Below are positions 2,537-22,505 of a stretch of 35,399 nucleotides of DNA, in pieces. The notes beneath the pieces are model-generated. The model was given only the letters and a program-made list of their open reading frames with translations, searched no databases and was not told the DNA's origin. How positions within the stretch are numbered: the first letter of the stretch is position 1; each line of letters starts with the position of its first letter. The position numbers and the translations under genes were made by a program. This DNA comes from Ramlibacter sp. (GTDB taxonomy: Bacteria > Pseudomonadota > Gammaproteobacteria > Burkholderiales > Burkholderiaceae_C), in NCBI GenBank assembly GCA_028292245.1, contig JAQGMS010000019.1:1-35399 (forward strand), written 5' to 3'.

Positions 2537-4026
2537 GCAATCCGGTCCGTTTGCGGGATCAGCGAACGATACAACGCGGCGTACTGGCCGGCGGCTTCGC
2601 GCCAGTCGAAGCGTTGCCCCATCGCCGTTCGCTGGACTTTCTTCCACGCGCCGGGCAGCGCATGCAAGTCGAATGCCCGCCGCAGGGCGGCCCGCAGGCC
2701 CTGGGTGCTGAACTCATCGAAAACGAAGCCGGTGGCAGTCCCGGCTTCGAGGTTTTCAGGGGTTGTGTCCACAACCGTGTCGGCCAACCCGCCGACGCGG
2801 TGTACCAGCGGCAGGGCGCCGTAACGCAGCCCATACAACTGGGTCAGCCCGCAGGGCTCGAACCGCGAGGGCACCAGGAGCACGTCCGCTCCCGCCATGA
2901 TGCCGTGAGCCAGGCACTCGTTGTAGCCGACCTGCACCGCGATCTGTCCCGGGTGCTTGGCCGCCGCGCGCACGAAGGCCTGCTCCAGCGGCGCATCGCC
3001 GGCGCCCAGCACGGCCAGTTGCGCGCCCGCGCGCACCAGTTCGTCGGCCACCGCCTCGATCAGGTGCAGGCCCTTCTGTTCGGTGAGGCGGCTGACGACG
3101 CCGAACACCATCGCGTCGGGGCGCTCCTGCAGGCCGATCTTGCGCTGCAGGTCTGCCTTCGCCGTGACCTTTTCTTCCAGCGATTCCACGTCGTACGGAT
3201 GCACCAGTGCGTCATCGCGCGAAGGGCTCCACACCGCGTAGTCCACGCCGTTGAGGATGCCGGACACCACATTGGAGCGGGCGCGCAGCAAGCCGTCCAG
3301 GCCGCAGCCCTGTTCGGCCGCCATGATCTCACGCGCGTAGGCCGGGCTGACGGTGGTGATGCGGTCGGCCGCTTGCAAGCCGGCCTTCATGAACGACACC
3401 TGCCCCCAGAACTCGATGCCGTCGATGCCGAACAGGTAGTCGGGCAGGCCCAGTTGCGGGAACAGCGTGCGCGGAAAGATGCCCTGGTACGCCAGGTTGT
3501 GGATGGTGAACACGCTGGCCGCGCGCGGCGGGCCGGGCATCGCCATCTGGCGCAGGTACAGCGGCGCCAGGCCGGTGTGCCAGTCGTGGCAATGCACGAT
3601 GTCGGGCTGCCAGTAAGCGTCCAGGCCATGGCCGAGGCAGGCGGCCGCCCAGCCGAGCAATGCAAAGCGGATGCCGTTGTCGCCCTGGGTGTCGGCGTAG
3701 GGATTGCCCGGCCGGTTGAACAAGGCCGGCGCGTCCAGCACATAGGCAGCCAGCTCGCTGCCGGGCAAGGTGGCGGGGCGCAGCATGGGCGCTTGCGCCG
3801 GCAGCGCGGACAGCTCGGGGCCGCGCCGCGCCGGCAGCGCCAACGGCTCGGCCTGCTTCAGGTGGCTGGGGCCGACGCCGTCGCGAATGGCCGGAAAGCC
3901 CGGCAGCAGCACCCGCACGTCGCAGCCGGCGTCACGCAGCGCCGGTGGCAGCGCGCCGCTGACGTCGCCGAGGCCGCCCGTCTTGAGCAGGGGGAAGATT
4001 TCGGTGCAGACGTAGAGGACTTTCAT
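2533..4026 (-). CDS. glgA: Glycogen synthase (ADP-glucose dependent)
   Basis: Transfers glucose from ADP-glucose to the growing alpha-1,4-glucan (GT5, GT-B fold). The 497-residue length is typical. The N-terminal ADP-glucose binding motif KTGGLGDV lies at residues 15-22 (lysine 15), and the C-terminal nucleotide-binding/catalytic stretch [18 protein letters not shown] is present. The start overlaps the glgC stop as ATGA and the stop overlaps the glgP start as ATGA, so translation of the three genes is probably coupled. It uses the product of GlgC and supplies linear chains to GlgB. Confidence 0.97.
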
Positions 4027-5306
4027 GCGGCGCCCGTGGCGGGCTGGGTTTCCAGGGCCTGCAGCATGTCACGGGTCACGAGCACGACGCCCTGCGCGGT
4101 GCGGTGGAAGCGCCGCGCATCCTCGACGGCGTCCACGCCGATGTGCATTCCGGGCGGAATCTGGCAGCCCTTGTCGACCACCACGCGGCGCAGCACGCAG
4201 CGCTTGCCGACGTCCACTTGCGGCAGCAGCACCGACTCTTCCACCGCCGCGTACGAATGCACGTGCACGCTGGAAAACAGCACCGAGCGGCGCACCCGCG
4301 CGCCGGAAATGATGCAGCCGCCCGATACCAGCGAGTCCACCGCATGGCCGCGCCGCGCGTTGTCGTCGTGCACGAACTTGGCCGGCGGCAATTGCTCCTG
4401 GTAGGTCCAGATCGGCCATTCCTCGTCGTACATGTCCAGCTCGGGCAGCGGGTCGGTGAGGTCCAGGTTGGCTTGCCAATAAGCGTCCACCGTGCCGACG
4501 TCGCGCCAGTAGGCGACGGCTTCCTGCGTGCTGCGCACGCACGACAGGTCGAACGGGTGCGCCCTGGCGTCGCCCAGCGCCACCATCGCGGGAATCAGGT
4601 CCTTGCCGAAGTCGTGGTGAGAAGCCGGATTGGCGGCGTCCTGCTTCATCGCCTCATACAGGTAGTCGGCGTCGAACACGTACACGCCCATGCTGGCGAG
4701 CGCGCGATCCGGCTTGCCGGGCATGGAGGGCGGCTCGGCCGGCTTTTCCAGGAACTGCAGGATGTTGCGTTGCGCGTCGATGTGCATCACGCCGAAGGCG
4801 GTGGCTTCCGAGATCGGCACCTCGATGCAAGCCACGGTGCAGCGCGCGTCCATCGTCACATGGTCGGCGATCATCCTGGCGTAGTCCATCTTGTAGACGT
4901 GATCGCCGGCCAGCACCAGGATGTACTTGGGGTTGTGGGCCAGCAGGATGTCCAGGTTCTGGTACACCGCGTCGGCGGTGCCGCGGTACCAGGATTCCTC
5001 GTCCATGCGCTGCTGCGCCGGCAGCAGGTCGATGAATTCGTTGAATTCGTTGCGCAGGAACGACCAGCCGCGCTGCAAATGGCGCAGCAGGCTGTGCGAC
5101 TTGTATTGCGTGACCACGCCGATGCGGCGCACGCCCGAGTTCAGGCAGTTGGAAAGCGCGAAATCGACGATGCGGAACTTGCCGCCGAAATACACGGCCG
5201 GCTTCGCGCGCCGGTCCGTGAGGTGCGCGAGGCGCGACCCGCGGCCACCGGCCAGGACCAGGGCGATGGTCCTGCGGGCGAGCTGAAGTGGATTTTGAGT
5301 TTCCAT
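4023..5306 (-). CDS. glgC: Glucose-1-phosphate adenylyltransferase
   Basis: Makes ADP-glucose from ATP and glucose-1-phosphate, the committed and usually allosterically controlled step of bacterial glycogen synthesis. The protein has 427 residues, close to the E. coli enzyme. It shows the nucleotidyltransferase motif LAGGRGSRL (about residues 18-26), the [16 protein letters not shown] segment (about 34-49) whose lysines contribute to effector and catalytic function in the family, and [12 protein letters not shown]. The C-terminal part is the left-handed beta-helix domain. It is separated from malQ by 50 bp, the only real gap in the operon, so it could have its own translation signal or an internal promoter, although none is obvious. 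Its stop overlaps the glgA start. Confidence 0.97.
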
Positions 5307-5356
5307 GGTCGGTCATTCTGATGCGATTGAGGCTCTACAGGGGGACTGGGCGCCAC

Positions 5357-6862
5357 TCATCGACATCGCCCGTGCGCTTTCGTGATGGAAGCCAGCTCGA
5401 CAGCAGGCGTCTCCCCCACCTGCCACCACTCGAACCGCCATTCCCAGCAGCCAACGCCACGGCCGGGCACGTTCATCCGGTGGTTGCCGTCCAGGCCCAG
5501 CACGTCCTGGAAGGGATAGACCACCGTGTTGGCCACCGATTGCGAAAGCGCCCGGATCGCGGCCCAGTGGATCGCCTGGTCCACCTGCGGCCCCAGGTAG
5601 CGGCGCGCAGCTTCCTGTTCGCGCGCGCCCAAGCCGTACCACCAGCCCAGCGTCGTGTCGTTGTCGTGGGTGCCGGTGTAGGCCACCGTGCGCGGCACGT
5701 AGTTGTGGGGCAAGTAGGGGTTGGCGGATGTGTCGCCGAAAGCGAACTGCAGGACGCGCATGCCGGGAAAGCCGCAGGCCTCGCGCAGTTGCGTCACGGC
5801 CGGGGTGATCACGCCCAGGTCTTCCGCGATCAGCGCCAGCGGGCCGAGCTGCGTGCGCAGCGCGTCGAAGAAGGCGGCGCCCGGCCCCGGCAACCACTTG
5901 CCGTTGACCGCGTGCTCCTCATCGGCCGGCACTTCCCAATAGGCCTCGAAGCCGCGAAAGTGATCGAGCCGCACCGCATCGAAGCAGCGCATCAGGTGCG
6001 CCAGCCGCCTGTTCCACCACGCATAGCCGTCGGCCTGCATCGCCGGCCAGTCGTACAGCGGGTTGCCCCAGCGCTGGCCGGTGGCGCTGAAGTAATCGGG
6101 CGGCACACCGGCGACGACGGTGGGTTCGCCGCCGTGGTCCAGCAGGTACTGCTCGGCGTTGGCCCAGACGTCGGCCGAATGGTGCGCGACGAAGATCGGC
6201 GCATCGCCCACCATCTGCACACCCCGCGAGTGCGCGTACGCGCGCAGCCGCGACCACTGCCGCATGAACTGCCATTGCACGAAGCACCAGAAGCCGACCT
6301 CGCCCGCAGCCTCTTCGCGCAGGCGCCGCAACGCCGCCTTCTCGCGCCACGCGAACTCGGCCGGCCAGCGGTTCCACGGCGTGCCATGGCGTTCATCCAG
6401 CGTCATGAAGAACGCGTAGTCGTCGAGCCAGTCCTGTTGCGCGTGTCGGAACTCTTCGAAGTCCCCGCGGTCCGCGGCGTTCGCGCCCCGGTTGAATCCG
6501 GCCCACGCTTCGCGCAGCATGGCCATGCGCGCGGGCGCGACGCTCGCGTAGTCGACCCGGCTGCGCTCGAAGTCGGTTGCCGGCATCGACTGCAGCCAGC
6601 CGCGCTCGGCGAGTTGGTTCAAGTCCACCAGCAAGGGGCTGCCGGCAAAAGTCGAAACGCTTTGGTAGGGGGAGTTGCCGGGGCCGACCGGGTTGAGCGG
6701 CAGCACCTGCCAGATCGACTGGCCGGCCGTCACCAGCCAATCGACGAAGTGATGGGCCTGCGCGCCCAAGTCGCCGCAGCCATGCGGCCCGGGCAGCGAT
6801 GTGGGATGCAACAGCACGCCGCTGCGGCGTGTGTCGAACAGGGTGGGCGTGGCCGCCGTCAT
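5357..6862 (-). CDS. malQ: 4-alpha-glucanotransferase (amylomaltase)
   Basis: Disproportionating enzyme (GH77) that transfers 1,4-glucan segments between maltodextrins, recycling the short chains left by GlgP and GlgX. The protein has 501 residues, with the N-terminal RRSGVLLHPTSLPGPHG motif, the nucleophile region DAVRLDHFRGFEAYWEVPA, the acid/base region LIAEDLGVI and the TGTHDNDTTLGWW region, all typical. The chosen start MTAATPTLF overlaps the glgX stop as ATGA; the long in-frame extension upstream is alanine/arginine-rich and lies inside glgX. Member of the glg operon between glgX and glgC. Confidence 0.96.
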   Translation of the reverse strand: MTAATPTLFDTRRSGVLLHPTSLPGPHGCGDLGAQAHHFVDWLVTAGQSIWQVLPLNPVGPGNSPYQSVSTFAGSPLLVDLNQLAERGWLQSMPATDFERSRVDYASVAPARMAMLREAWAGFNRGANAADRGDFEEFRHAQQDWLDDYAFFMTLDERHGTPWNRWPAEFAWREKAALRRLREEAAGEVGFWCFVQWQFMRQWSRLRAYAHSRGVQMVGDAPIFVAHHSADVWANAEQYLLDHGGEPTVVAGVPPDYFSATGQRWGNPLYDWPAMQADGYAWWNRRLAHLMRCFDAVRLDHFRGFEAYWEVPADEEHAVNGKWLPGPGAAFFDALRTQLGPLALIAEDLGVITPAVTQLREACGFPGMRVLQFAFGDTSANPYLPHNYVPRTVAYTGTHDNDTTLGWWYGLGAREQEAARRYLGPQVDQAIHWAAIRALSQSVANTVVYPFQDVLGLDGNHRMNVPGRGVGCWEWRFEWWQVGETPAVELASITKAHGRCR

Positions 6863-13050: not shown

Positions 13051-14607
13051 ATGGCTTCCTCACCTCCCGGAACCACCAAGCCCCACCCACCCACCCGCGA
13101 AGACGTGCTGGCCGAGTGCGAGGCGGCCGACCGCAACTGGGCCGCGGCGCCGGGGCGCAACCTGGTGCTGCTGTTCGACGGCACAGGAAACATCCTGGGC
13201 AACAACCAGGACACCAACGTCGTCAAGATGCTGCGCCTGCTGGTCAAGCACAGCCCGGCCGCGCCGCAGCGGCCCGCCCAGGTGGTGTACTACGACCCCG
13301 GCGTCGGCACCACCAATGAGTTTCCGGCGGCCAGCATCGCCAGCAAGGTGGCGGGCTTCTTCCGGCAGGTGAAGGGGCTGGCGCTGGGCAGCGGCGCTTT
13401 CGAGAACATCACGCAGGCCTACGAGTTTCTCGCGAGCAATCATGAAGAGGGCGATCGCATCTATCTGTTCGGCTTCTCGCGCGGCGCGTTCACGGCGCGC
13501 GCCGTCGGCGGCATGGTCAACATGTATGGCCTGGTCCACGCGCCGGGGCTGCCGCTGATCCGCAACCTGGTGCGCAACTACTTTGCCAAGCCCAGCCCAG
13601 AGCGCGAAGGGTTCACGCAAGACGTGATCGACAACTTTTCGCTGGGGCGCACGCCGCTGGTTCACTTCATCGGCGTGTGGGACACGGTCGAGACCATCGG
13701 CAGCGGCTTGCTCGGCGGCGTTTCGATCAGCAACTCGAAGGACTTCGAGCGCAAGCGCTTTGTGCACGTGCGCCACGCGATGTCGCTGCACGAAACGCGC
13801 AGCAAGTACAAGCCGCGCGGCTACACCGCGCCGAAGTTCACGCCGCAAGAGGAGGCGTGCCGCAGCTTCGACGAGCGCTGGTTTCGCGGCGTGCACAGCG
13901 ACATCGGCGGCTCTTATGCGCGCGACGGCCTGTCGAACGTGACGCTGGCCTGGATGGTCGGCCAGGGGCAAGCGCGCGGGCTGTTGCTGGCCAAGGCGAA
14001 CCCGCATGTGCCCGACGCGAGCGTGCCCATGCACGACCAGACGCTGGACAGCCCGTACTGGGCGTGGACCGGCATGAACGCGCGCGCGAGGGACGGCGGC
14101 GCCGTGATCGACGACAGCGCCAAACCCATCGAGGACGCGAAGCCGGCGGTGCGCTCACCGGGCGCGTGGAAGTGGCAATTGGCCGGCTGGCTGCTGTACG
14201 TGCTGCTGGTGATCCTGCTCTGGCAGGCGTGGCGCGACGGCGGCTCACCCGCACCCATGTGCACCGCGGCCGAGGTGCGCGACGGGCTGTGCCTGGACTG
14301 GGCCATCCTCATCACGATGGCGCTGTGGCTGGCCTACCCGGTGGCGTGGGCGCTGCGCCGGCTGGCGGCGCACGCGATTCTGAAGGGGCAAGAGATCAAT
14401 TGGCTGGCGCGCTATGCGCACCGATGGATGGCCGGCTTCGTGGTCGCTGACGTGACGGAGAACCTGCTGGCCTGGTACGACGAGACTTGGTCGGACATGG
14501 TGGTGCCGTGGCTTTGTGGCGCGAAGTTCGGGTTCTTGGTGGCGCTGGGGGTTGTGTGGGTGATGGGGGTGTTTGCGATGCGTCGATCCGGAAAAATGCC
14601 ACGATGA
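13051..14607 (+). CDS. DUF2235 alpha/beta-hydrolase with C-terminal membrane segments
   Basis: The protein has 518 residues. The first 330 or so match the DUF2235 (Tle1-like) hydrolase family: NLVLLFDGTGN (about 37-47), the nucleophile elbow GFSRG (141-145, serine 143), HFIGVWDTVE, and WFRGVHSDIGGSY (277-289) carrying the predicted catalytic Asp/His region. The C-terminal third has three hydrophobic stretches (about 374-393, 416-436, 490-509), so it is probably anchored in the inner membrane. DUF2235 proteins include type VI secretion phospholipase effectors, but no VgrG, PAAR or immunity gene is near and the membrane anchor argues for a housekeeping or envelope role. The final codons run into the duplicated DUF3297 flank, with the stop overlapping its decayed ATG. 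Confidence 0.88.
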   Translation: MASSPPGTTKPHPPTREDVLAECEAADRNWAAAPGRNLVLLFDGTGNILGNNQDTNVVKMLRLLVKHSPAAPQRPAQVVYYDPGVGTTNEFPAASIASKVAGFFRQVKGLALGSGAFENITQAYEFLASNHEEGDRIYLFGFSRGAFTARAVGGMVNMYGLVHAPGLPLIRNLVRNYFAKPSPEREGFTQDVIDNFSLGRTPLVHFIGVWDTVETIGSGLLGGVSISNSKDFERKRFVHVRHAMSLHETRSKYKPRGYTAPKFTPQEEACRSFDERWFRGVHSDIGGSYARDGLSNVTLAWMVGQGQARGLLLAKANPHVPDASVPMHDQTLDSPYWAWTGMNARARDGGAVIDDSAKPIEDAKPAVRSPGAWKWQLAGWLLYVLLVILLWQAWRDGGSPAPMCTAAEVRDGLCLDWAILITMALWLAYPVAWALRRLAAHAILKGQEINWLARYAHRWMAGFVVADVTENLLAWYDETWSDMVVPWLCGAKFGFLVALGVVWVMGVFAMRRSGKMPR

Positions 14608-14862
14608 CCGAAGTCGCCAGCGGCCAGCTACCCCAAGTCCACTCGATCTATTCGCCTGTCCATCCGTGGCCCCGCGCAACTCACATCACGACGCCGCCGC
14701 AGGCGCGGGCATGACATCGGCATCGCTTCAATGACAAGGCGCGCTACGATGTGGAGGACCACCGCCTCGGCGGGGCTAGGTGGAAGGTGCCAGCAAGACG
14801 GTGTCGAAATGGGAAGCCGTTTTTGACCGCGGCGAAACGGTGGGTGGAGGCGTCTTCGGTAG
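14604..14862 (+). pseudogene. Decayed second copy of the DUF3297 gene
   Basis: Reads as a degenerate copy of 11921-12196. Shared blocks in the same order include GATGACCGAA at the start, CATCACGACGCCGCCG against CATCACAACGCCGCCG, GACATCGGCATC, TTCAATGACAAG against TTCAACGACAAG, GTGGAGGA, TGGGTGAAGGTGCC against TAGGTGGAAGGTGCC, and GGGTGGAGGCGT at the end. Small deletions shift the frame several times and in-frame stops appear, so no protein of the family can be made. The similarity begins about 17 bp upstream of the ATG, inside the last codons of the DUF2235 gene. It marks the left edge of the low-GC island. Confidence 0.75.
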
Positions 14863-14945
14863 CGGCCGGATATCGGACAAACAATGTACGTTGGACTCCT
14901 CCTCGTTATCAACCTCTCTTGGCTTGTCCGTACTCTGAGTCAGAC

Positions 14946-15572
14946 ATGAGCATTCCAGAAAGAATCGAAGTCAAGCAGCACCTCCTCCAGCTCTTAGAGG
15001 AACGAGGCAGCATATCGGTCAAGGAGGCATATGCTGCACTGGCTGCGCAGTGGCGGCTTACCGATCAAGAGATGGCTGTTCGTCGCGCGGGGGGACCGCT
15101 ATACGAGCACGAGATTCGATGGGCCCGTCAAGAACTAGTTGTAGACGGGATCATGGATCGACCAGGGAAGCAAGGCCGAGGTCAATGGAAACTACGTGTC
15201 GATGGAGAGTTTGATATTGCCGGCCCGGAACAGGAGGAGCTGCGCCGATGGCCCGAAGGGGCCGTACTAAAGCTCGTTGTCAATAAGTACGAGCGAAGTG
15301 CTAGCGCACGTCGGCTGTGTATCGCGATTCATGGCGTCGCTTGTAAGGCGTGTGGAGTGCGCCTCGAAGACCTGTATGGCTTGTTAGCGGCAGGCCGGAT
15401 ACATGTCCATCACGTGTCGCCTTTGAGCGCACTCGGTGAAAATTACCAAGTCGATCCGGTCTTAGACCTCATCCCACTGTGTCCGAATTGTCATTTCGTA
15501 GCTCATCTGCAAGAGCCCCCGTTGACAGCCGAACAGCTGCGATCTCTTCTTCAAGGGAAGCAAGTTTCATAA
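14946..15572 (+). CDS. HNH endonuclease with Mrr-N-like winged helix
   Basis: Predicted DNA endonuclease, 208 residues. Residues about 5-85 resemble the Mrr N-terminal winged-helix domain found in restriction enzymes: LLQLLEERGSISVKEAYAAL, a helix with LTDQEM, then LYEHEIRWARQELVVDGIMDRPGKQGRGQWKL. Residues about 128-186 form a zinc-type HNH: C133-X2-C136, H155-H156 in RIHVHHVSPL, then C179-X2-C182-H183 (LCPNCH). The start at 14946 (MSIPERIEV) is chosen because the frame further upstream runs through the decayed DUF3297 copy. Its 3' end overlaps the 3' end of the minus-strand DGQHR gene by 22 bp, so it converges on the modification operon. Likely the cleaving partner of the methyltransferase, which is an inference from position. 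Confidence 0.85.
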   Translation: MSIPERIEVKQHLLQLLEERGSISVKEAYAALAAQWRLTDQEMAVRRAGGPLYEHEIRWARQELVVDGIMDRPGKQGRGQWKLRVDGEFDIAGPEQEELRRWPEGAVLKLVVNKYERSASARRLCIAIHGVACKACGVRLEDLYGLLAAGRIHVHHVSPLSALGENYQVDPVLDLIPLCPNCHFVAHLQEPPLTAEQLRSLLQGKQVS

Positions 15573-17284
15573 ATCTTGTTTCCAAGCGACTTCCACGCGC
15601 TGGACTTGTAGGTTCCAAACCGAACACCATGTATCCCGCTGAGCCTTTGACTGTAGCTTTTGCGACTACGGGTCCTCTTCGACTCGATCAGGAGCCGGAT
15701 GCAGACGAAGAACCCGTTGATCGTTGTCGTACTTAGCAGTTGCCGATCTTTTGGGGTGCTGGGTTTCCACTTATCCGGTCCAATCGCCAACTTTGCCTCG
15801 ATCAGAAAGTCATTGATCTCCTGCGTGCAAAAGCCAATGTAGGCCTGAAGCGTTGCTTTGCGCACCTCAATATCGGCTTGCTTATCCGCGAGAACCGACT
15901 TACGCGGATCCTGCCAGGCGGCAAAGAAGGAATCGTCACCGTCGGTCTTGACGAGCGGTCGCAAACCGTAACTTACGATGGAACTAGTCTTGATTTTGTC
16001 TGGCGGGTCAAAGAAATTTGTTTGTAGCATTCCCGCCAGTGGACCGCTCCTGGACAGTTTGTTGGTAATTTCCTTTGCAATTGCAATCGTCGAAAAGGGA
16101 TTCAACAAGACTTCAATACTCTGCTTGAGCACAGTCTTTGCGCGAGCCTGTGTGTCATTGATTTCTAAGAACAACTTTGCTTCGAACTCTCTTCTTTGGC
16201 TCGCTGTCCATGACGCGGGGAAAATTAGTCCCGTGACAAGCAGATTTTGCCGCGTCCGCTGTTTGCCAATTTCACGATCTAGTGGATCGTTTGGAGCCTC
16301 GTGGTAACAAAAGACGCGGTGCTGACCATCTACCAACCCGATCATATTTGCCTTGAGCGGCACTGAAATCGAAATGGCACGTACGGCAAGCAGCTGCGAA
16401 TTGTCGACATTTCGCCCGGTTTCGGGGTCGTTGATAACAGCTTCGTTGGGGAGGGTCACAACGATGTTATTGACAAAGACCCGCTTCGCATTCGTGAGGT
16501 ATAGCCTCATCTTCCGGATCTTGGACTTGAACAATATTCTCTGATACAGACCGTCTTCATCGCGCCAACTATCCCGCCGCAACACATAGGACATTTCGAG
16601 CATCGTTGCCGGATCAGCGTAGAACGAAACAACCTTGAATCCTCTGGGGTAGCCGCTATTGGTTTCCGGCAATATGTAGCCGTGAAAATTCGTTGTCTGC
16701 AGAGCGCTGCTGTGAATTCGGTCACCCAGACGTTTGAGATCAACTCCTAAGTAATTGAAGAATTCATGTCGGGCTGAATGATGAATCGTCTTGCTCAAGG
16801 CATCAAAGTACCGAAGTCGCGTGCCGTCTAAGAAGCGGTAGTGCGGAAACGCGTCTTCGAGTTGTTGGTCGGCGCCGTGAAGAGACGCATAGCAGACAAA
16901 CACTTGAAACTCGTTGGCATCGAAGCCGCTAGCTTGGATCGCATCACTAAAGCCCAAGTTAAGTCCGCAGTACTCCGTGATCCAGTCCGCACTCCGTTTG
17001 AGTATTTTTTCGTAAAGGATACTTTTCCTGGCCAGATGTGATGTATCAGGGCGACCCGTCGTGTACTCCGCAATTACCAGAATGTTGCGATAGAGTAGAA
17101 CGTCATCGATTTCGCCATCTCGGCCGTCAAATGTGAACTGGACTCCATCTGTCCGTATCCAATCGAAGCCAATTCGCTGAAACACAGCCCTCGTCGACAG
17201 GCGCTGTCGGCGCTGTTCTGCCCTTTGCGGGTCGACATTTCGCTTCAACCTCCGGCTACGACGCTTCTTGGGTGTGCTAGCCAT
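15551..17284 (-). CDS. Large DGQHR-domain protein with nuclease-like N-terminus
   Basis: The protein has 577 residues. It carries a DGQHR motif at residues 319-323 (context GLVDGQHRVFCYH), the signature of the DndB-related family (TIGR03187). After it come an aromatic/hydrophobic stretch and LFLEINDTQARA, the counterpart of the family's F..IN..A segment. The N-terminus is basic (KKRRSRRLKR). Residues 57-78 read GEIDDVLLYRNILVIAEYTTGR, resembling the core of a PD-(D/E)XK nuclease (acidic E58/D60, then E73-Y-T75 where E-X-K is expected), so it may be a degenerate or lysine-shifted nuclease domain. The start overlaps the methyltransferase stop by 8 nt and follows a strong GGAGGAG, so the two are translationally coupled. 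Exact function unknown. Confidence 0.83.
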   Translation of the reverse strand: MASTPKKRRSRRLKRNVDPQRAEQRRQRLSTRAVFQRIGFDWIRTDGVQFTFDGRDGEIDDVLLYRNILVIAEYTTGRPDTSHLARKSILYEKILKRSADWITEYCGLNLGFSDAIQASGFDANEFQVFVCYASLHGADQQLEDAFPHYRFLDGTRLRYFDALSKTIHHSARHEFFNYLGVDLKRLGDRIHSSALQTTNFHGYILPETNSGYPRGFKVVSFYADPATMLEMSYVLRRDSWRDEDGLYQRILFKSKIRKMRLYLTNAKRVFVNNIVVTLPNEAVINDPETGRNVDNSQLLAVRAISISVPLKANMIGLVDGQHRVFCYHEAPNDPLDREIGKQRTRQNLLVTGLIFPASWTASQRREFEAKLFLEINDTQARAKTVLKQSIEVLLNPFSTIAIAKEITNKLSRSGPLAGMLQTNFFDPPDKIKTSSIVSYGLRPLVKTDGDDSFFAAWQDPRKSVLADKQADIEVRKATLQAYIGFCTQEINDFLIEAKLAIGPDKWKPSTPKDRQLLSTTTINGFFVCIRLLIESKRTRSRKSYSQRLSGIHGVRFGTYKSSAWKSLGNKIYETCFP

Positions 17285-18596
17285 GTGGCTCCTCCACTTC
17301 GAGTTTTATGGGGCTAAAGAGGTAGTCCTCGCTGTCCCAGGCGGTTTTGAATGAGACCTCGCCCGTTTGAAAGTGTGAGTTGGTCCGAGAATACGTGAAG
17401 TAGATGAGCTTGCGTCGTACCGGACTGATTTCATTCGCAGATTCAATAAATGTGAACGTGGGTTGCACACCAAATTTTGATAACGGCGGCTTCTTGATCG
17501 CTGTCTCGGTCAATTTCATCGCTTCTTTTCGCTGTCGTGCCATCGGTAGATAGACGACGTACTCTGCCGAATAGTGTTTGAAATTCTCTGTCGGCTTGGT
17601 CGGTAACTCAAAGACATAGACCTGTATGCCCGCGTCCGGATACTCAGCAAGCAATGTGCGCAAAATCAGGCGCCCGAACTTGAGAATCCGTAGGGCGCCG
17701 ATGGTTGATTCGAAGTCGGCCACCGAGCGCGAGTGGGGAGATCGGAGCCGACGTTGCCCTTGTGTGGCCAACTCTTGCGCCAGATGCTTCTTGAACATCT
17801 TGACGTACTTGGCGTTGAGTTCGCTTCCAATATAGGAGCGTCCGAGCAACTTGCTGACAGTGGGCACGGTGCCAGAGCCCGAAAATGGATCGAATACCAC
17901 TCCATTTTTGGTCGTCGTAAGTTGGACTATTCGGGCAACCAGGTCGCTCGGTAACGGACAAAAGTGGCGGATGTAACTATCGCCCCATGAGCCCTGAGTT
18001 GGAATGTCATAGCTCCAAATCTCCTCCGGCGCCTTTCCTCTGGGGTTATATCGTTCCGGATACCGAACCCACCAGCGCTTTAGGTCATCTCTATCTCGGT
18101 ACTTGTCCAAGTCGTACTTGAACTGATCGACGCTCTTCGACAGCACCAATATGTACTCGAATATCTTTCGCGTCGCTCCGTTGCGAACCCATGGGACGGT
18201 CCGCTCTTTTTTCCAAATGACGATGTCGCGTAGGACCCAGCCTAGGCCCTTGAGCCTGCGAGCAATATCGAAAGGAAGCGGATAGACTACTTGTCCCTTG
18301 CGGAAGGTATCGACGATGATCCACAACGACCCATTCTTCTTGGTGGCCCGATAAACTTCGCTGAATACTAACGCGAGGTCATCCAAGTATCCTTCATAGT
18401 CTTGGCCGAAGCCGATTTGATTGGGCCGGTCATAGTCTTTGAGGTCGAAATATGGAGGTGATGTGATAGTCACATTGACGCTGTTGTCTGGCAACCAAGT
18501 TGTAATCTCTCGGGCGTCACCAACGTGCACTTCATCAAGCAATTCAGATAGCGACTTCCGTCCCTCATTTGCGGCAATTTTTTTCTTATCCGTCAT
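17277..18596 (-). CDS. TSPPY-type DNA methyltransferase
   Basis: S-adenosylmethionine-dependent DNA amino-methyltransferase, 439 residues. Catalytic motif IV TSPPY lies at residues 45-49 and precedes the AdoMet-binding motif I FDPFSGSGT (235-243), followed by YIGSELNAKYV. This is the beta-type order, shared by N4-cytosine and N6-adenine enzymes of restriction-modification systems. TSPPY is found in both, so the modified base is not decided. Residues 280-439 form an extra C-terminal part that the core fold does not need; it may hold target recognition or a partner contact. Located between an unknown gene (64-bp gap upstream) and the large DGQHR gene (8-nt overlap). Confidence 0.93.
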   Translation of the reverse strand: MTDKKKIAANEGRKSLSELLDEVHVGDAREITTWLPDNSVNVTITSPPYFDLKDYDRPNQIGFGQDYEGYLDDLALVFSEVYRATKKNGSLWIIVDTFRKGQVVYPLPFDIARRLKGLGWVLRDIVIWKKERTVPWVRNGATRKIFEYILVLSKSVDQFKYDLDKYRDRDDLKRWWVRYPERYNPRGKAPEEIWSYDIPTQGSWGDSYIRHFCPLPSDLVARIVQLTTTKNGVVFDPFSGSGTVPTVSKLLGRSYIGSELNAKYVKMFKKHLAQELATQGQRRLRSPHSRSVADFESTIGALRILKFGRLILRTLLAEYPDAGIQVYVFELPTKPTENFKHYSAEYVVYLPMARQRKEAMKLTETAIKKPPLSKFGVQPTFTFIESANEISPVRRKLIYFTYSRTNSHFQTGEVSFKTAWDSEDYLFSPIKLEVEEPHG

Positions 18597-18660
18597 GTAT
18601 TCTGTCTTCGGTGGTCGAGGATGTGCAAAGGTGACGATGCACGCAGGAGTTCGTTAAGTG

Positions 18661-19587
18661 CTAAAAGATCGAGCCGCCTTGGGCGTATTCGAAGTCAGTG
18701 CGCAGTACCAGGCGATCGGGGGCGCACGCTGATGCAAGCAGCTCCTTCTCCGATGCAATGGCCGGGGCATGGGTGGCGAGAGCGGATAGCAAGCCGACAC
18801 TGCTTGAAAACAGCAAAGTCGCCAGGACCAAGCTGAAGTCTTCATTGTCAACATCTAATCGGTCGAGAAGCGGCGGTGGGGTGCGGAATCTACAGTAGGT
18901 CAAACTCGATGTTGAGGTGTGAAGGTCCCCAAAAGTCCAAGACGTCTTGTACTGAAGTCGGTTTCGTTGGCGGGCGAACTCCTTGTCATCAATTTCTTGA
19001 AGCGCGTTGATCAAACCAGCCTCAATCGGAGCATTGGACAACGTGCGTAGAACGCGCTTGAAGACTGCCCATCGGTGATAGTGATCCACCCTATTGATGT
19101 GCAGCAGGTGAACCTCGGAGCCGAGAATGTAGCTTTCGCGATTCTTTCTAGAGAGGCGCTGCTCAACCGAAGGCCAGAGATCGACCAACATTGTTCGGTC
19201 GCTGATTTCGACTATGCCAACGCCTAAGAGTTGGAGCAATGCCTCCATCGAGAAGAACGCGGATTGATATGCCGTTGCGACACTCCAGGTAGGAAATCCG
19301 CCCAGTGCTTGGGTTTGGGCTCCGACCAGAACGTTTGCGGCTTTGTGCAGGAGAAAGATGGACTCATGCAGCATGGCAACCGCCACACCGGAAACGGGAG
19401 TTCGTATCTCTGAATGGGCAGGGACACTTGCAAACGCCTGCGCTAGCAAGTAGACGTCCTCGACTGCTTCAGCGGGCGGCTTTCCCGGATATTCGATATT
19501 CAGGCCTGCAACGGCAGGTATCCAAGCTCCCTGGACGGCATTCCAATCTCGATGGCTGAGGCGTTTCAGTTGCGTCTCGAAAGACAT
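18661..19587 (-). CDS. Island protein of unknown function, possibly HEPN-like
   Basis: The protein has 308 residues; no family is recognised with confidence. It is mostly alpha-helical by composition, with no signal peptide or clear membrane segment. One helix, SVATAYQSAFFSMEALLQLLG (about residues 98-118), resembles the AYY..F..A.ALL helix of HEPN proteins, and a later RNRLQYKTSW resembles the R-N-X3-Y end of that fold; this is weak and unproven. The start MSFETQLKRL at 19587 is chosen because it follows the preceding stop by 4 nt; the longer open frame upstream lies inside that gene. Second gene of the island operon. Confidence 0.75.
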   Translation of the reverse strand: MSFETQLKRLSHRDWNAVQGAWIPAVAGLNIEYPGKPPAEAVEDVYLLAQAFASVPAHSEIRTPVSGVAVAMLHESIFLLHKAANVLVGAQTQALGGFPTWSVATAYQSAFFSMEALLQLLGVGIVEISDRTMLVDLWPSVEQRLSRKNRESYILGSEVHLLHINRVDHYHRWAVFKRVLRTLSNAPIEAGLINALQEIDDKEFARQRNRLQYKTSWTFGDLHTSTSSLTYCRFRTPPPLLDRLDVDNEDFSLVLATLLFSSSVGLLSALATHAPAIASEKELLASACAPDRLVLRTDFEYAQGGSIF

Positions 19588-19591
19588 CTTT

Positions 19592-20614
19592 CTAGCCCAA
19601 ATCGAGCAGTTGGGTTTCTCCCGCGCCATCCATGAACGCGGCCAGCAACTCGGTTCGCAGGTCTTCGCCAGCCTGTGTTTCAGCGGCACTTCCTGTGCCG
19701 AGATTTTCCCAACCTGCGAAGTCGAAGTGCTTGACTTGGCTAAACACTTTCGCGACGTCTTCAACTTTAAACGCTTTGTACTTCTTAATGCAAAGGCCAA
19801 GGAAAACCGGAAGCGCATTCATGAGTGCCCCGAAACCCAAAGTTTGATAGAACAAATTAGCGTGCTTCTGAAAGACCTGCGGAAACGCTACTTGTAGGCC
19901 CTTGTAATAATTTGCGATCACGAGCTTTTGTTCCGTGACCGAATATGGAGCCAAGACCCGCCCATCAAGCAGCAGTGGGTAGACCTTGCGCACGAAGTTA
20001 TTTAAGGATATTTGTCCCTTTTTCGGGGCCGACGTAATGACGATCCTCCCGGAAAATGGGGAATCTTCTTCTTTGCGCAATTCTGCTGCGATATCTGCGG
20101 CTCGTTCCTTTGCCCGTTCGGCAGGCGATTTGTCAGGCAAGTGACTTAGAAGGTCATAGTAAAGCGAGGTAGGAACGCCTTTAGCCTCCTTATTGATGGT
20201 GACAAATTGCTGGATCTGGGCGTCCACATCCAATCCAACAAAAGCAATCACGGGCAGTTCAATATCCTTGGATGATTGATGTGCCCCTGCAAGTCGATGC
20301 TGACCATCAATTACCCAACCGGCGTTGGCCTTTGTGGGTACTGCAATCTCTGTTCCCGTCGCGTTGATCGTTGCTTTCGAAAACGATACTAGGATACTTG
20401 TCGGAATTGGGTTCTTGGCGGATATGTACTTTGCGATGGAACTCACGCGCGACGGGGACAATATTCGCTGATAACCTTTGTCCTTATCGGGATCGCGAGT
20501 GTTGATCTGCACCAACTTCCACAAGGACTTTGCCGACGCGGCAAAGGCGTAGAGCGTAGTGGTTCCCTGTTTGATCGGGATGCACTTGAACTTTGTAGTC
20601 TTTGGCTGCGCCAT
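19592..20614 (-). CDS. DndB-like DGQHR-domain protein
   Basis: The protein has 340 residues, close to DndB length. It shows a ParB/DndB-like N-terminal part with KGYQRILSPSRVSSIAKYI (about 46-64), the DGQHR motif at 103-107 (VIDGQHRLAGAH), and FVTINKEAKGV about 30 residues later, the second conserved motif of the family. In phosphorothioation systems DndB represses the dnd operon and binds DNA; here no dndA, C, D or E gene is present, so a regulatory or nucleic-acid sensing role next to a methyltransferase is inferred. It is the first gene of the four-gene operon, where an autorepressor would be expected. The 85-bp upstream gap to glnS must contain the promoter. Confidence 0.85.
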   Translation of the reverse strand: MAQPKTTKFKCIPIKQGTTTLYAFAASAKSLWKLVQINTRDPDKDKGYQRILSPSRVSSIAKYISAKNPIPTSILVSFSKATINATGTEIAVPTKANAGWVIDGQHRLAGAHQSSKDIELPVIAFVGLDVDAQIQQFVTINKEAKGVPTSLYYDLLSHLPDKSPAERAKERAADIAAELRKEEDSPFSGRIVITSAPKKGQISLNNFVRKVYPLLLDGRVLAPYSVTEQKLVIANYYKGLQVAFPQVFQKHANLFYQTLGFGALMNALPVFLGLCIKKYKAFKVEDVAKVFSQVKHFDFAGWENLGTGSAAETQAGEDLRTELLAAFMDGAGETQLLDLG

Positions 20615-20699: not shown

Positions 20700-22505
20700 T
20701 TACTTTCCCCAACTATCCTTCATCCCCGCCACTCTGTTAAACACGGGCTTACCCTCTCCCCCATTCGGAGGAAGCGATAAGTGGTCCTTTCTGTCCGCCA
20801 CAAAGTACCCATGCCTCTCAAACTGAAACTTCTCATCCCCCTTCGCTGACGCCAGCGACGGCTCTACATACGCCGCCACCACCTTCAAGCTGTCCGGGTT
20901 CAGTTCCTCGTGAAAGTCCTTCTCCGTCGTGTCCGGCTGCGGCACTGAAAACAATCGGTCGTACAGCCGCACTTCGGCCTTCAGTGCATCGGCCACGGCC
21001 ACCCAGGTGATCACGCCTTTCACTTTCACTGCGTCGCTGCCGGGCGTGCCGCTCTTGGTGTCGGGCACCAGCTCGGCCTGCACTTCGGTGACGTTGCCGG
21101 CTGCGTCCTTGGTGGCGCCCTTGCACACGATCACGTGGCCGTACTTCAGGCGCACCTTGTTGCCGGGGTACAGGCGGTTGTAGCCCTTGGGCGGCACTTC
21201 CTCATAGTCGGTGCGCTCGATCCACAGAGAGTTGCCAAACTTGAACTCGCGCCGGCCCAGCTCGGGGTTGTGCGGATGCACGGGGGCGGAGCAGGCGTCG
21301 AGAAAATCTTCCGAGCCCATCACCTCGCCCCAATTGGTGATGACCAACTTCACCGGGTCCAGCACCGCCATCGCGCGCGGGGCCTTCGGGTCCAGGTCGT
21401 CGCGCAGCGCCGCTTCCAGCGTGCTGTAGTCGATCCAGCTGTCGCTCTTGGTGACGCCGATGCGCTCGGCAAACAGCTGGATGCTCTCGGGTGTGTAGCC
21501 GCGCCGGCGCAGGCCCACGATGGTGGGCATGCGCGGGTCGTCCCAGCCCGCCACGCGGCCCTCGTCCACCAATTGCTTCAACTTGCGCTTGCTGGTGATC
21601 ACATAGGTCAGGTTCAGCCGCGCGAATTCATATTGGCGCGGGTGCGGCTTGTTGGTCAGCCCGCCTTCGCTCAGCGCGTCCAGCAGCCAGTCGTAGAACG
21701 GCCGCTGGTCCTCGAACTCCAGCGTGCACAGGCTGTGCGTGATGTTCTCCAGCGCGTCCTCGATCGGGTGCGCATAGGTGTACATCGGGTAGATGCACCA
21801 CTTGTCGCCGGTGTTGTGGTGCGTGGCGCGGCGGATGCGGTAGATCGCCGGGTCGCGCATGTTGATGTTGGGGCTGGCCATGTCGATCTTGGCGCGCAGC
21901 ACAGCGGCGCCGTCATCGAGCTTGCCGTCGCGCATGTCGCGAAAGCGCTGCAGGTTCTCGTCGATGCTGCGGCTGCGGTACGGGCTGTCGGTGCCGGGCT
22001 TGCCGAAGTCGCCGCGGTTGTGGCGCATCTCCTCGGCGCTCTGTTCGTCCACATAGGCCAGGCCGGCTTCGATCAGATACTCGGCCGCGCGGTACATGAA
22101 GTCGAAGTAGTCGCTGGCGTGGTACAGGTGCTCGGTTCCGTTCGCGTCCCAGCTGAAGCCCAGCCACTTCACCGCGTCGAGGATGGAGTCGACGTATTCC
22201 TTGTCTTCCTTCTCCGGGTTGGTGTCGTCGAACCGCATGTGGCACACGCCGTTGTAATCGCGCGCCAACCCGAAGTTGATGCAGATGCTCTTGGCATGGC
22301 CCACATGTAAGTAACCGTTGGGCTCGGGCGGGAAGCGGGTGCGGATCTTCGCGGGGTCGCCCTGGCCCTGTTCATGCTGCGCTGCGTCAGCGGGGCGGCC
22401 GGCCCATTTGCGTTGGGCGTAGGTGCCTTGCTCCAGGTCGCGTTCGATCACCTGGCGCAGGAAATTACTGGTTTTTAGGGGTTCTTTGTCAGCAGCGGAA
22501 GTCAT
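20700..22505 (-). CDS. glnS: Glutaminyl-tRNA synthetase
   Basis: Charges tRNA-Gln with glutamine in the cytoplasm (class I aminoacyl-tRNA synthetase). The protein has 601 residues. It has the class I HIGH-type motif in PPEPNGYLHVGHAKS, the FDDTNPEKE segment, and VITSKRKLKQLV as the KMSKS-type loop. The C-terminal anticodon-binding beta-barrels are present (LWIERTDYEEVPPKGYNRLYPG). Core gene on the right side of the island; its 3' end faces the island operon's promoter. High GC like the rest of the chromosome. Confidence 0.97.
   Translation of the reverse strand: MTSAADKEPLKTSNFLRQVIERDLEQGTYAQRKWAGRPADAAQHEQGQGDPAKIRTRFPPEPNGYLHVGHAKSICINFGLARDYNGVCHMRFDDTNPEKEDKEYVDSILDAVKWLGFSWDANGTEHLYHASDYFDFMYRAAEYLIEAGLAYVDEQSAEEMRHNRGDFGKPGTDSPYRSRSIDENLQRFRDMRDGKLDDGAAVLRAKIDMASPNINMRDPAIYRIRRATHHNTGDKWCIYPMYTYAHPIEDALENITHSLCTLEFEDQRPFYDWLLDALSEGGLTNKPHPRQYEFARLNLTYVITSKRKLKQLVDEGRVAGWDDPRMPTIVGLRRRGYTPESIQLFAERIGVTKSDSWIDYSTLEAALRDDLDPKAPRAMAVLDPVKLVITNWGEVMGSEDFLDACSAPVHPHNPELGRREFKFGNSLWIERTDYEEVPPKGYNRLYPGNKVRLKYGHVIVCKGATKDAAGNVTEVQAELVPDTKSGTPGSDAVKVKGVITWVAVADALKAEVRLYDRLFSVPQPDTTEKDFHEELNPDSLKVVAAYVEPSLASAKGDEKFQFERHGYFVADRKDHLSLPPNGGEGKPVFNRVAGMKDSWGK

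What the first reader, a model, noticed from the sequence alone, without database searches (positions are those of the whole stretch)
14946..20614. Candidate undescribed modification/defence island: two DGQHR proteins, methyltransferase, unknown protein and HNH nuclease
Seen: five genes between a decayed DUF3297 copy and glnS, visibly less GC-rich than both flanks. Four form a tight minus-strand unit (4 nt, 64 bp, then an 8-nt overlap) and an HNH nuclease converges on it with a 22-bp tail overlap. Known: DGQHR proteins (DndB, TIGR03187) are linked with phosphorothioation and 7-deazaguanine systems, TSPPY enzymes methylate DNA, and Mrr-N plus HNH is a restriction architecture. No dndACDE or 7-deazaguanine genes are present. 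Inference: a restriction-modification-like system in which two DGQHR proteins replace or control the usual specificity and regulation parts. I do not know a named system with this gene set.
Basis: partly seen in the sequence, partly recalled or inferred. Interest (0 to 1): 0.85.

Follow-up and report, generated by a model that had tools for sequence, protein, structure and literature searches.

The report
Two stacked methylase-linked defence modules
Between two ordinary genes this bacterium carries two different gene sets that pair DNA-marking and DNA- or RNA-cutting proteins around the same little-known 'DGQHR' switch domain; phage sequences carry such sets too, so they look like unnamed self/non-self defence systems, but nothing has been tested at the bench.

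Summary
The five genes are real, but comparison splits them into two modules plus a separate HNH gene. Module A: a TSPPY methyltransferase followed by the large DGQHR protein, a pair kept in 11 of 11 full-length loci compared. The large protein's first 185 residues model as a PD-(D/E)XK nuclease. Module B: the small DGQHR protein followed by the 308-residue protein; in 12 of 12 close viral-contig loci, one bacterial contig and one phage record a TSPPY methyltransferase stands directly upstream. In the window that gene is missing and module A's methyltransferase follows instead. The 308-residue protein models as a HEPN fold with a changed active-site motif (R-N-x3-Y and an upstream His). No HNH homologue was found in the 29 other loci. 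Likely roles: methylation-gated restriction (A) and methylation-gated release of a HEPN effector (B); neither is shown. A 2013 table row already notes another HEPN family in operon with ParB and methylase genes, so the theme is not wholly new; my searches found no named system. 'No dnd genes' holds for the window only: the assembly has a dnd cluster elsewhere, with its own DGQHR protein.

The parts
19592..20614 (-). Module B, gene 1: small DGQHR protein (ParB/DndB-like), 340 aa; keeps the QR (49-50), DGQHR (103-107) and F-x3-N (137-141) motifs
   Evidence: TIGR03187 140 bits over cut-off; 63% identical to the L031 viral-contig protein over its whole length; motifs invariant in the 11 rows of A6
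18661..19587 (-). Module B, gene 2: 308-aa HEPN-like protein, candidate effector; R208-N209-x3-Y213 in place of HEPN Rx4-6H, H169 upstream, E75 and K82 invariant
17277..18596 (-). Module A, gene 1: TSPPY beta-class DNA methyltransferase, 439 aa with a C-terminal extension of about 130 aa
   Evidence: PF01555 140.8 bits; motif IV TSPPY at 45-49 before motif I DPFSGSGT at 236; own subclade with L002, L003, L029, L053
15551..17284 (-). Module A, gene 2: 577-aa protein, N-terminal PD-(D/E)XK-like nuclease domain (about 16-185) fused to a DGQHR domain (about 217-400) and a helical tail
14946..15572 (+). Mrr_N + HNH nuclease, converging on module A with a 22-bp tail overlap; probably a separate gene, not part of A or B
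   Evidence: Mrr_N 35.3 bits, HNH 19.8 bits below cut-off; no homologue in the 29 other loci compared; plasmid matches: 189 records, none covering 80%, the 20 rows shown match only its HNH half
20700..22505 (-). glnS, the anchor gene: in 9 of 34 regions fetched from the genus an AT-richer frame follows its 3' end
14608..14945 (.). remnant resembling the DUF3297-type neighbour, left edge of the island
   Evidence: six-frame comparison, 45 residues 49% E 6e-8

Best explanation
The island is two stacked, separately inherited self/non-self modules built on the same switch, a DGQHR (ParB/sulfiredoxin-type, nucleotide-binding) protein. Module A is a two-gene restriction-modification-like system: the methyltransferase marks the host DNA at a short sequence, and the 577-residue protein uses its DGQHR part as a nucleotide-driven DNA sensor that lets the attached PD-(D/E)XK nuclease cut DNA lacking the mark. 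Module B couples a second DGQHR protein to a separate HEPN-fold effector; in its complete form a third gene, a TSPPY methyltransferase, supplies the mark. When the DGQHR protein meets unmarked invading DNA (or the mark is lost) it would release the HEPN protein, which most likely attacks RNA and stops the cell or the phage. In this genome B has no methyltransferase of its own kind and was probably added between glnS and an A pair already at that site, so it either borrows A's methyltransferase or works without one, as on some plasmids and phages. Shown: gene content, separate conservation, co-divergence of DGQHR and HEPN, mobile-element context; predicted: folds and motifs. Inferred: methylation gating, nucleotide use, DNA and RNA cleavage, anti-phage role.
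For: A: adjacent methyltransferase in 11 of 11 full-length large-DGQHR loci (window, L002, L003, L004, L005, L073, L028, L056, L029, L030, L053), from two methyltransferase subfamilies. The pair alone is a low-GC insert in G402 (genes at 0.50 and 0.39 GC, most neighbours 0.60-0.64); it overlaps the end of glnS in Polaromonas L003 and follows a second, partial glnS copy about 1.1 kb from glnS in Hydrogenophaga L002. N-domain nuclease fold with invariant D60, E73, K87. B: methyltransferase-DGQHR-HEPN in 12 of 12 close viral-contig loci (10 distinct; L039-L041 give the same scores and coordinates), contig G471 and phage record L054. DGQHR and HEPN distances correlate at r 0.925 (Mantel p 2e-4), methyltransferase-DGQHR at 0.465 (p 0.007), methyltransferase-HEPN at 0.576 (p 0.001), n = 10 loci (L035 left out for its uncertain methyltransferase start, L040, L041, L054 as duplicates). 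The effector parts diverge most: L038/L039 are 90% (methyltransferase), 45% (DGQHR), 25% (HEPN) identical. Repressor-type genes lie near B in L033, L037, L038, L039 (neighbours picked by eye) and L054 (annotated). Contrast: 11 other DGQHR proteins in 8 relatives have no such methyltransferase in the 12-17 kb fetched. Precedents: DndI, a ParB-like NTPase-HNH nuclease whose ATPase responds to phosphorothioation, and SspE (PMC11662687, passages); a DndB-like protein binds ATP and GTP (PMC12704722, passages).
Confidence: 0.6

Rival explanations
1. One composite four-gene system: the two DGQHR proteins, the methyltransferase and the 308-aa protein act together, possibly with HNH.
For: Tight operon-like spacing 4 nt / 64 bp / 8-nt overlap and similar GC, 0.50-0.55; B in the window has no upstream methyltransferase and P0003 is the only match to a B-type methyltransferase in this assembly (32%), so sharing is possible here.
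Against: The four-gene order was seen in none of the 29 other loci; A and B recur apart. L002 and L003 have A near glnS without B.
Confidence: 0.15
2. Module B is a toxin-antitoxin or superinfection-exclusion pair: HEPN toxin held by the DGQHR protein, the methyltransferase being an optional passenger.
For: Pairs without methyltransferase on a Leptospira plasmid, a Providencia plasmid, the filamentous Pseudomonas phage PfAC19 and genome G144, and in the window itself; DGQHR and HEPN co-diverge more tightly than either does with the methyltransferase.
Against: Among viral-contig DGQHR proteins at least 44% identical to P0005 the methyltransferase is upstream in 12 of 12 loci, in the same order; the pairs without it are, the window apart, more distant (E 8e-7 to 1e-5 for three of their partner proteins against the A4 profile in a search of five sequences).
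Confidence: 0.3
3. The DGQHR proteins are transcriptional regulators or modification helpers (as reported for DndB, or DpdB), and the methyltransferases act as orphan or anti-restriction enzymes of mobile elements.
For: DndB has been described as an ATP-dependent repressor of the dnd operon (PMC10853773 and PMC12704722, passages); methyltransferases on temperate phages often protect them (recalled).
Against: The large protein carries an N-terminal nuclease-fold domain with invariant acidic residues, not expected of a plain regulator; B carries the HEPN-like partner in each B locus compared.
Confidence: 0.15

Closest known systems
DndI / SspE / GmrSD: ParB-fold (DUF262, DGQQR) NTPase with an HNH nuclease
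   Same: A ParB/Srx-type domain with a DGQxR motif joined to a nuclease, and (DndI, SspE) activity set by DNA modification (PMC11662687, passages); the similarity of DGQHR to DUF262 is stated in PMC4619093 (passages)
   Different: Here the nuclease is N-terminal and PD-(D/E)XK-like, no DUF262 or DUF1524 match was found at E up to 0.1, and the mark would come from a TSPPY methyltransferase next door instead of phosphorothioation or glucosylation
HEPN family MAE_28990 (PMC3710099, Table 1; passages only)
   Same: HEPN gene reported 'in operon with a ParB nuclease and DNA methylase genes': the same three-part theme as module B
   Different: That family is listed as keeping Rx4-6H; ours has Tyr for His in 11 of 11 rows, and seven proteins of our family or its distant pairs gave no HEPN match in Pfam at E up to 10
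PrrC with its type I R-M host system
   Same: An HEPN RNase kept in check by a DNA restriction-modification complex and released when that is disturbed (PMC3710099, passages)
   Different: PrrC has an ABC ATPase domain and hsdMSR neighbours; B has a DGQHR protein and a single methyltransferase
PD-lambda-5 (PMC9519451, passages)
   Different: P0004 has no PADLOC match at E up to 0.1 and P0005 only DpdB/DndB matches
Dnd (DndB) and Dpd (DpdB) systems
   Same: DGQHR/DndB-family protein
   Different: P0005 scores 105 bits against the DpdB cut-off of 300 and 82 against 450 for DGQHR_dnd_1; no dnd or dpd genes among the five; the host's dnd cluster is on another contig and has its own DGQHR protein

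Membership tests
Type II restriction-modification (module A) | DNA methyltransferase gene beside its nuclease gene, conserved as a pair | tested here: met
   11 of 11 full-length loci; methyltransferase PF01555 140.8 bits
Type II restriction-modification (module A) | partner has a restriction-nuclease fold with a PD-(D/E)XK site | tested here: inconclusive
   fold supported; D60 and E73 invariant but Thr replaces the Lys of E-x-K
Type II restriction-modification (module A) | cuts unmethylated DNA at a defined sequence | not testable with these tools
   needs biochemistry and methylome data
Dnd phosphorothioation system | dndC/D/E beside the DGQHR gene; DndB-type equivalog score | tested here: not met
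   none among the five island proteins; P0005 82 bits against 450 for TIGR04172; separate dnd cluster on C402
Dpd 7-deazaguanine system | DpdB equivalog score over cut-off | tested here: not met
   105 bits (P0005) and 27.9 bits (P0002) against 300
GmrSD / SspE / DndI | DUF262 plus DUF1524 HNH in one protein or pair | tested here: not met
   no such Pfam match in any of the five proteins at E up to 0.1
HEPN superfamily (308-aa protein) | HEPN fold | tested here: met
HEPN superfamily (308-aa protein) | Rx4-6H RNase motif | tested here: not met
   His replaced by Tyr in 11 of 11 rows (N after R in 10 of 11); an upstream His is kept in 9 of 11, Gln in 2, as reported for AF0298 and AbiV types
HEPN MAE_28990 family | sequence membership | tested here: inconclusive
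   no HEPN model matched in Pfam at E up to 10; I did not check that this family's model is in the copy used
PD-lambda-5 | match to its PADLOC models | tested here: not met
   P0004 no family, P0005 only DpdB/DndB, at E up to 0.1
One conserved four- or five-gene system (finding) | gene order recurs in other genomes | tested here: not met
   0 of 29 other loci hold both modules, and none holds HNH (some loci are short or end at a contig edge)

The most novel reading that the evidence does not exclude
DGQHR proteins are general, nucleotide-fed readers of DNA base methylation that can drive different weapons: a fused PD-(D/E)XK DNase (A), a separate HEPN RNase of a new active-site type (B), and others seen in passing (D12 methyltransferase with a NERD-like-DGQHR fusion, L075; D12 methyltransferase with a predicted membrane protein and DGQHR, L125). 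They would form an unnamed class of modification-gated immunity in which loss of a methyl mark can trigger RNA cleavage instead of DNA cutting.
Probability: 0.35. Interest if true: 0.82.

Novelty: new variant of a known kind. Interest (0 to 1): 0.62.

Why it matters
If right, it explains what some DGQHR proteins outside Dnd and Dpd do, adds a methylation-based counterpart to DndI/SspE, and gives temperate phages a compact restriction-plus-abortive-infection cassette whose methyltransferase stays much more alike than its effector. It is directly testable: two genes (A) or three genes (B), under 3.5 kb each, in E. coli K-12.

Tried and rejected
One conserved four-gene system: rejected because the order recurs in none of 29 other loci. 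HNH as a part: rejected, no homologue beside A or B there; the 20 plasmid rows shown (of 189 records) match only its HNH half. Dnd or Dpd dependence: scores far under equivalog cut-offs; the host's dnd cluster has its own DGQHR protein. Solved-structure sequence searches with A4 and A5 gave nothing at E up to 1; with A6 two ribosomal-protein matches at E 0.09, taken as chance. Repeats around the island: only short or imperfect matches. Promoter and terminator scans: no more than in shuffles. E. coli genomes: no DNA match for a Providencia B-like pair or for the L039 triad. MAE_28990 in the paper library: only the 2013 paper. The VIA-align list shows no row that I recognise as ParB or sulfiredoxin for the large protein; the list is filled by the N-domain and the DGQHR part is poorly modelled, so this says nothing about that fold. 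I did not build a separate tree of DGQHR proteins.
Full report
OBSERVATION. The 308-aa protein can also be read from an upstream start (385 aa, frame to 19818); homologues in other loci can start just after the DGQHR gene, which favours 19587. The HNH frame can extend to GTG 14751. The large DGQHR protein is just under the TIGR03187 cut-off (54.4 against 58.85 bits), but keeps the three DGQHR-family motifs named in PMC4619093 (QR pair, DGQHR, F-x3-N; passages): Q248-R249, 319-323, F372-x3-N376, invariant in A1 and A5.

TWO MODULES. Searches with the large protein found 2 loci in genome contigs, 3 plasmid records, 1 phage record, 3 viral contigs and one more from a second query, and in a draw of 299 genomes of the phylum one full match beside its own plus one DGQHR-only match; in 147 relatives only its own. 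Each full-length one has a TSPPY methyltransferase beside it: 11 of 11 counting the window (L056 in 127 only). In ten they run head-to-tail, methyltransferase first; in Akkermansia phage Chantilly they converge. The Spirosoma plasmid has only the N-terminal domain, next to a methyltransferase and an annotated BglII/BstYI-type enzyme; I do not count it among the 11. In a Polaromonas MAG (L003) the pair overlaps the end of glnS; in Hydrogenophaga sp. A37 (L002) it follows a second, partial glnS copy, about 1.1 kb from glnS itself; neither has the small DGQHR and 308-aa genes. In G402 the pair is an AT-richer insert (0.50 and 0.39 GC) between genes mostly of 0.60-0.64 GC.

Searches with the small DGQHR family (A3) gave 21 viral-contig loci. 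The 12 with matches of 44-63% identity over most of the protein all have methyltransferase-DGQHR-308-aa homologue in that order, overlapping or within about 10 bases; L039, L040 and L041 give the same scores and coordinates, so I count 10 distinct. The other 9 matches are weaker (27-40% identity, 8 of them partial) and show no 308-aa homologue; one (L049) has a methyltransferase-like frame about 3.6 kb away. The same triad is on a contig of another family of the order (G471, L072) and in an Acinetobacter phage record (L054), whose three proteins are 100% identical to those of L039. Pairs without methyltransferase in the stretch read occur on a Leptospira plasmid (L007), a Providencia plasmid (L008), filamentous phage PfAC19 (L052) and genome G144 (L074). 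Three of their partner proteins match the A4 profile weakly (E 8e-7 to 1e-5 in a search of five sequences; the G144 partner was not in that search) and keep R-N-x3-Y; the G144 partner matches the Providencia one (64 bits). The 308-aa protein itself gave no plasmid match, 1 of 147 relatives (its own) and, as a profile, 2 of 300 genomes of the order (own and G471).

Contrast set. P0005 matched 11 of 147 relatives, own included. Of the ten others, eight (L146-L153, 11 DGQHR proteins) have no methyltransferase of the four kinds queried in the 12-17 kb fetched; G144 has a B-like pair without one; G016 has a D12 methyltransferase two genes upstream of its DGQHR gene, directly after glnS (L125). So the link to a TSPPY methyltransferase marks these two clades and is not general, but other methyltransferase pairings exist; G343 (L075) has a D12 methyltransferase beside a 761-aa protein with a DGQHR domain and a sub-threshold NERD match (19.1 bits, cut-off 22.1). 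Other methyltransferase families were not looked for.

HNH has no homologue in any of the other 29 loci.

HOW IT EVOLVES. Ten B loci: distances of DGQHR and HEPN correlate at 0.925 (Mantel p 2e-4), methyltransferase with DGQHR 0.465 (p 0.007), with HEPN 0.576 (p 0.001); mean distances 0.39 (methyltransferase), 0.52 (DGQHR), 0.76 (HEPN). L035 was left out (uncertain methyltransferase start), as were the duplicates. Example: L038/L039 90, 45 and 25% identity. DGQHR and HEPN look like an interacting pair; the methyltransferase is conserved or exchanged (inference). Of ten neighbours picked by eye for PHROGs, those in L033, L037, L038 and L039 best match a transcriptional repressor family (PHROG 4); others were UmuD-like, a repressor, an integrase and tail genes. 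An annotated cI stands upstream in L054. Neighbours in L031, L032, L035, L036 and L042 were not classified.

THE glnS SITE. Of 41 genomes of the genus, 40 gave a match to glnS, at least three of them only weak and partial; I fetched 34 downstream regions, some short at contig ends. Frames were chosen by length, not proven genes. In 9 of 34 (L107, L111, L114, L119, L124, L125, L127, L130, L136) the frame after glnS has GC of 0.56 or less. Of those nine, five carry Pfam or PADLOC matches typical of defence or toxin-antitoxin genes: HEC-01A/B (L107), OLD/GajA-like (L114), MqsA (L111), D12 methyltransferase with DGQHR (L125), D12 methyltransferase with an HTH protein (L136). A second, partial glnS 3' end lies close by in G005, G020 and Hydrogenophaga L002, as integration events could leave. 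I ran no comparison with other chromosomal sites. In the window, B sits between glnS and A; since L002 and L003 have A there without B, B was probably added later (inference). The only match in this assembly to a B-type methyltransferase is module A's, 32% identical; the assembly is 85.6% complete.

MECHANISM. Best reading: A is restriction-modification with a nucleotide-fed DGQHR-nuclease, the methylation counterpart of DndI, whose ATPase and nuclease activities respond to DNA modification (PMC11662687, passages). B is a methylation-linked trigger for a HEPN effector, comparable in logic to PrrC beside a type I system (PMC3710099, passages) and to PD-lambda-5, said to appear to be a compacted prophage RM+Abi system (PMC9519451, passages). 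A DndB-like protein binds ATP and GTP (PMC12704722, passages). None of this was tested on these proteins.

NOVELTY. 'DGQHR' occurs in six papers of the library; I read passages of one (PMC4619093) and saw the other five only in listings, whose titles and abstract openings do not describe these gene sets. Further searches and passages of PMC10853773, PMC12839542 and PMC13092281 gave no named system with these parts. The nearest statement is the 2013 table row on MAE_28990 HEPN with ParB and methylase genes. PADLOC (2023) gave no match for the 308-aa protein and only a DpdB match, outside the nuclease domain, for the large one. Most subscription papers and preprints were not searchable.

VERDICT. 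Real, split into two modules and better explained than at first reading; an unnamed variant of modification-gated defence, untested.

Noticed in passing
G000 contig C402:82000-101000 (L141): The same assembly carries a dnd cluster: DGQHR/DndB-like, dndC (642 bits) and, by size and look, dndD and dndE, then 806-, 434- and 479-aa frames, with an integrase-like frame next to it.
   Followed up: partly
G005:C65:33350-33772, G020:C66:18985-19353, L002:1138-1614: Second, partial glnS 3' ends close to glnS, suggesting repeated integration at the glnS 3' end.
   Followed up: partly
L125 (G016:C39), 442-3108: D12 methyltransferase, 211-aa predicted membrane protein (by eye) and DGQHR protein directly after glnS: a third DGQHR combination at the same site.
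   Followed up: partly
L075 (G343:C45), 3143-6311: D12 methyltransferase beside a 761-aa protein with a weak NERD-like nuclease match and a DGQHR domain.
   Followed up: partly
L006 (Spirosoma plasmid), 14398-16495: TSPPY-type (SSPPY) methyltransferase, annotated BglII/BstYI-type enzyme and a stand-alone N-terminal nuclease-like domain without DGQHR, running to the record's end.
   Followed up: partly
window 22375-22463 +: ARAGORN calls a tRNA-Ala inside glnS on the other strand; probably a false positive.
   Followed up: no
L003:9935-12817: A 960-aa frame that by eye looks like a type IIG or MmeI-like enzyme follows module A in Polaromonas.
   Followed up: no
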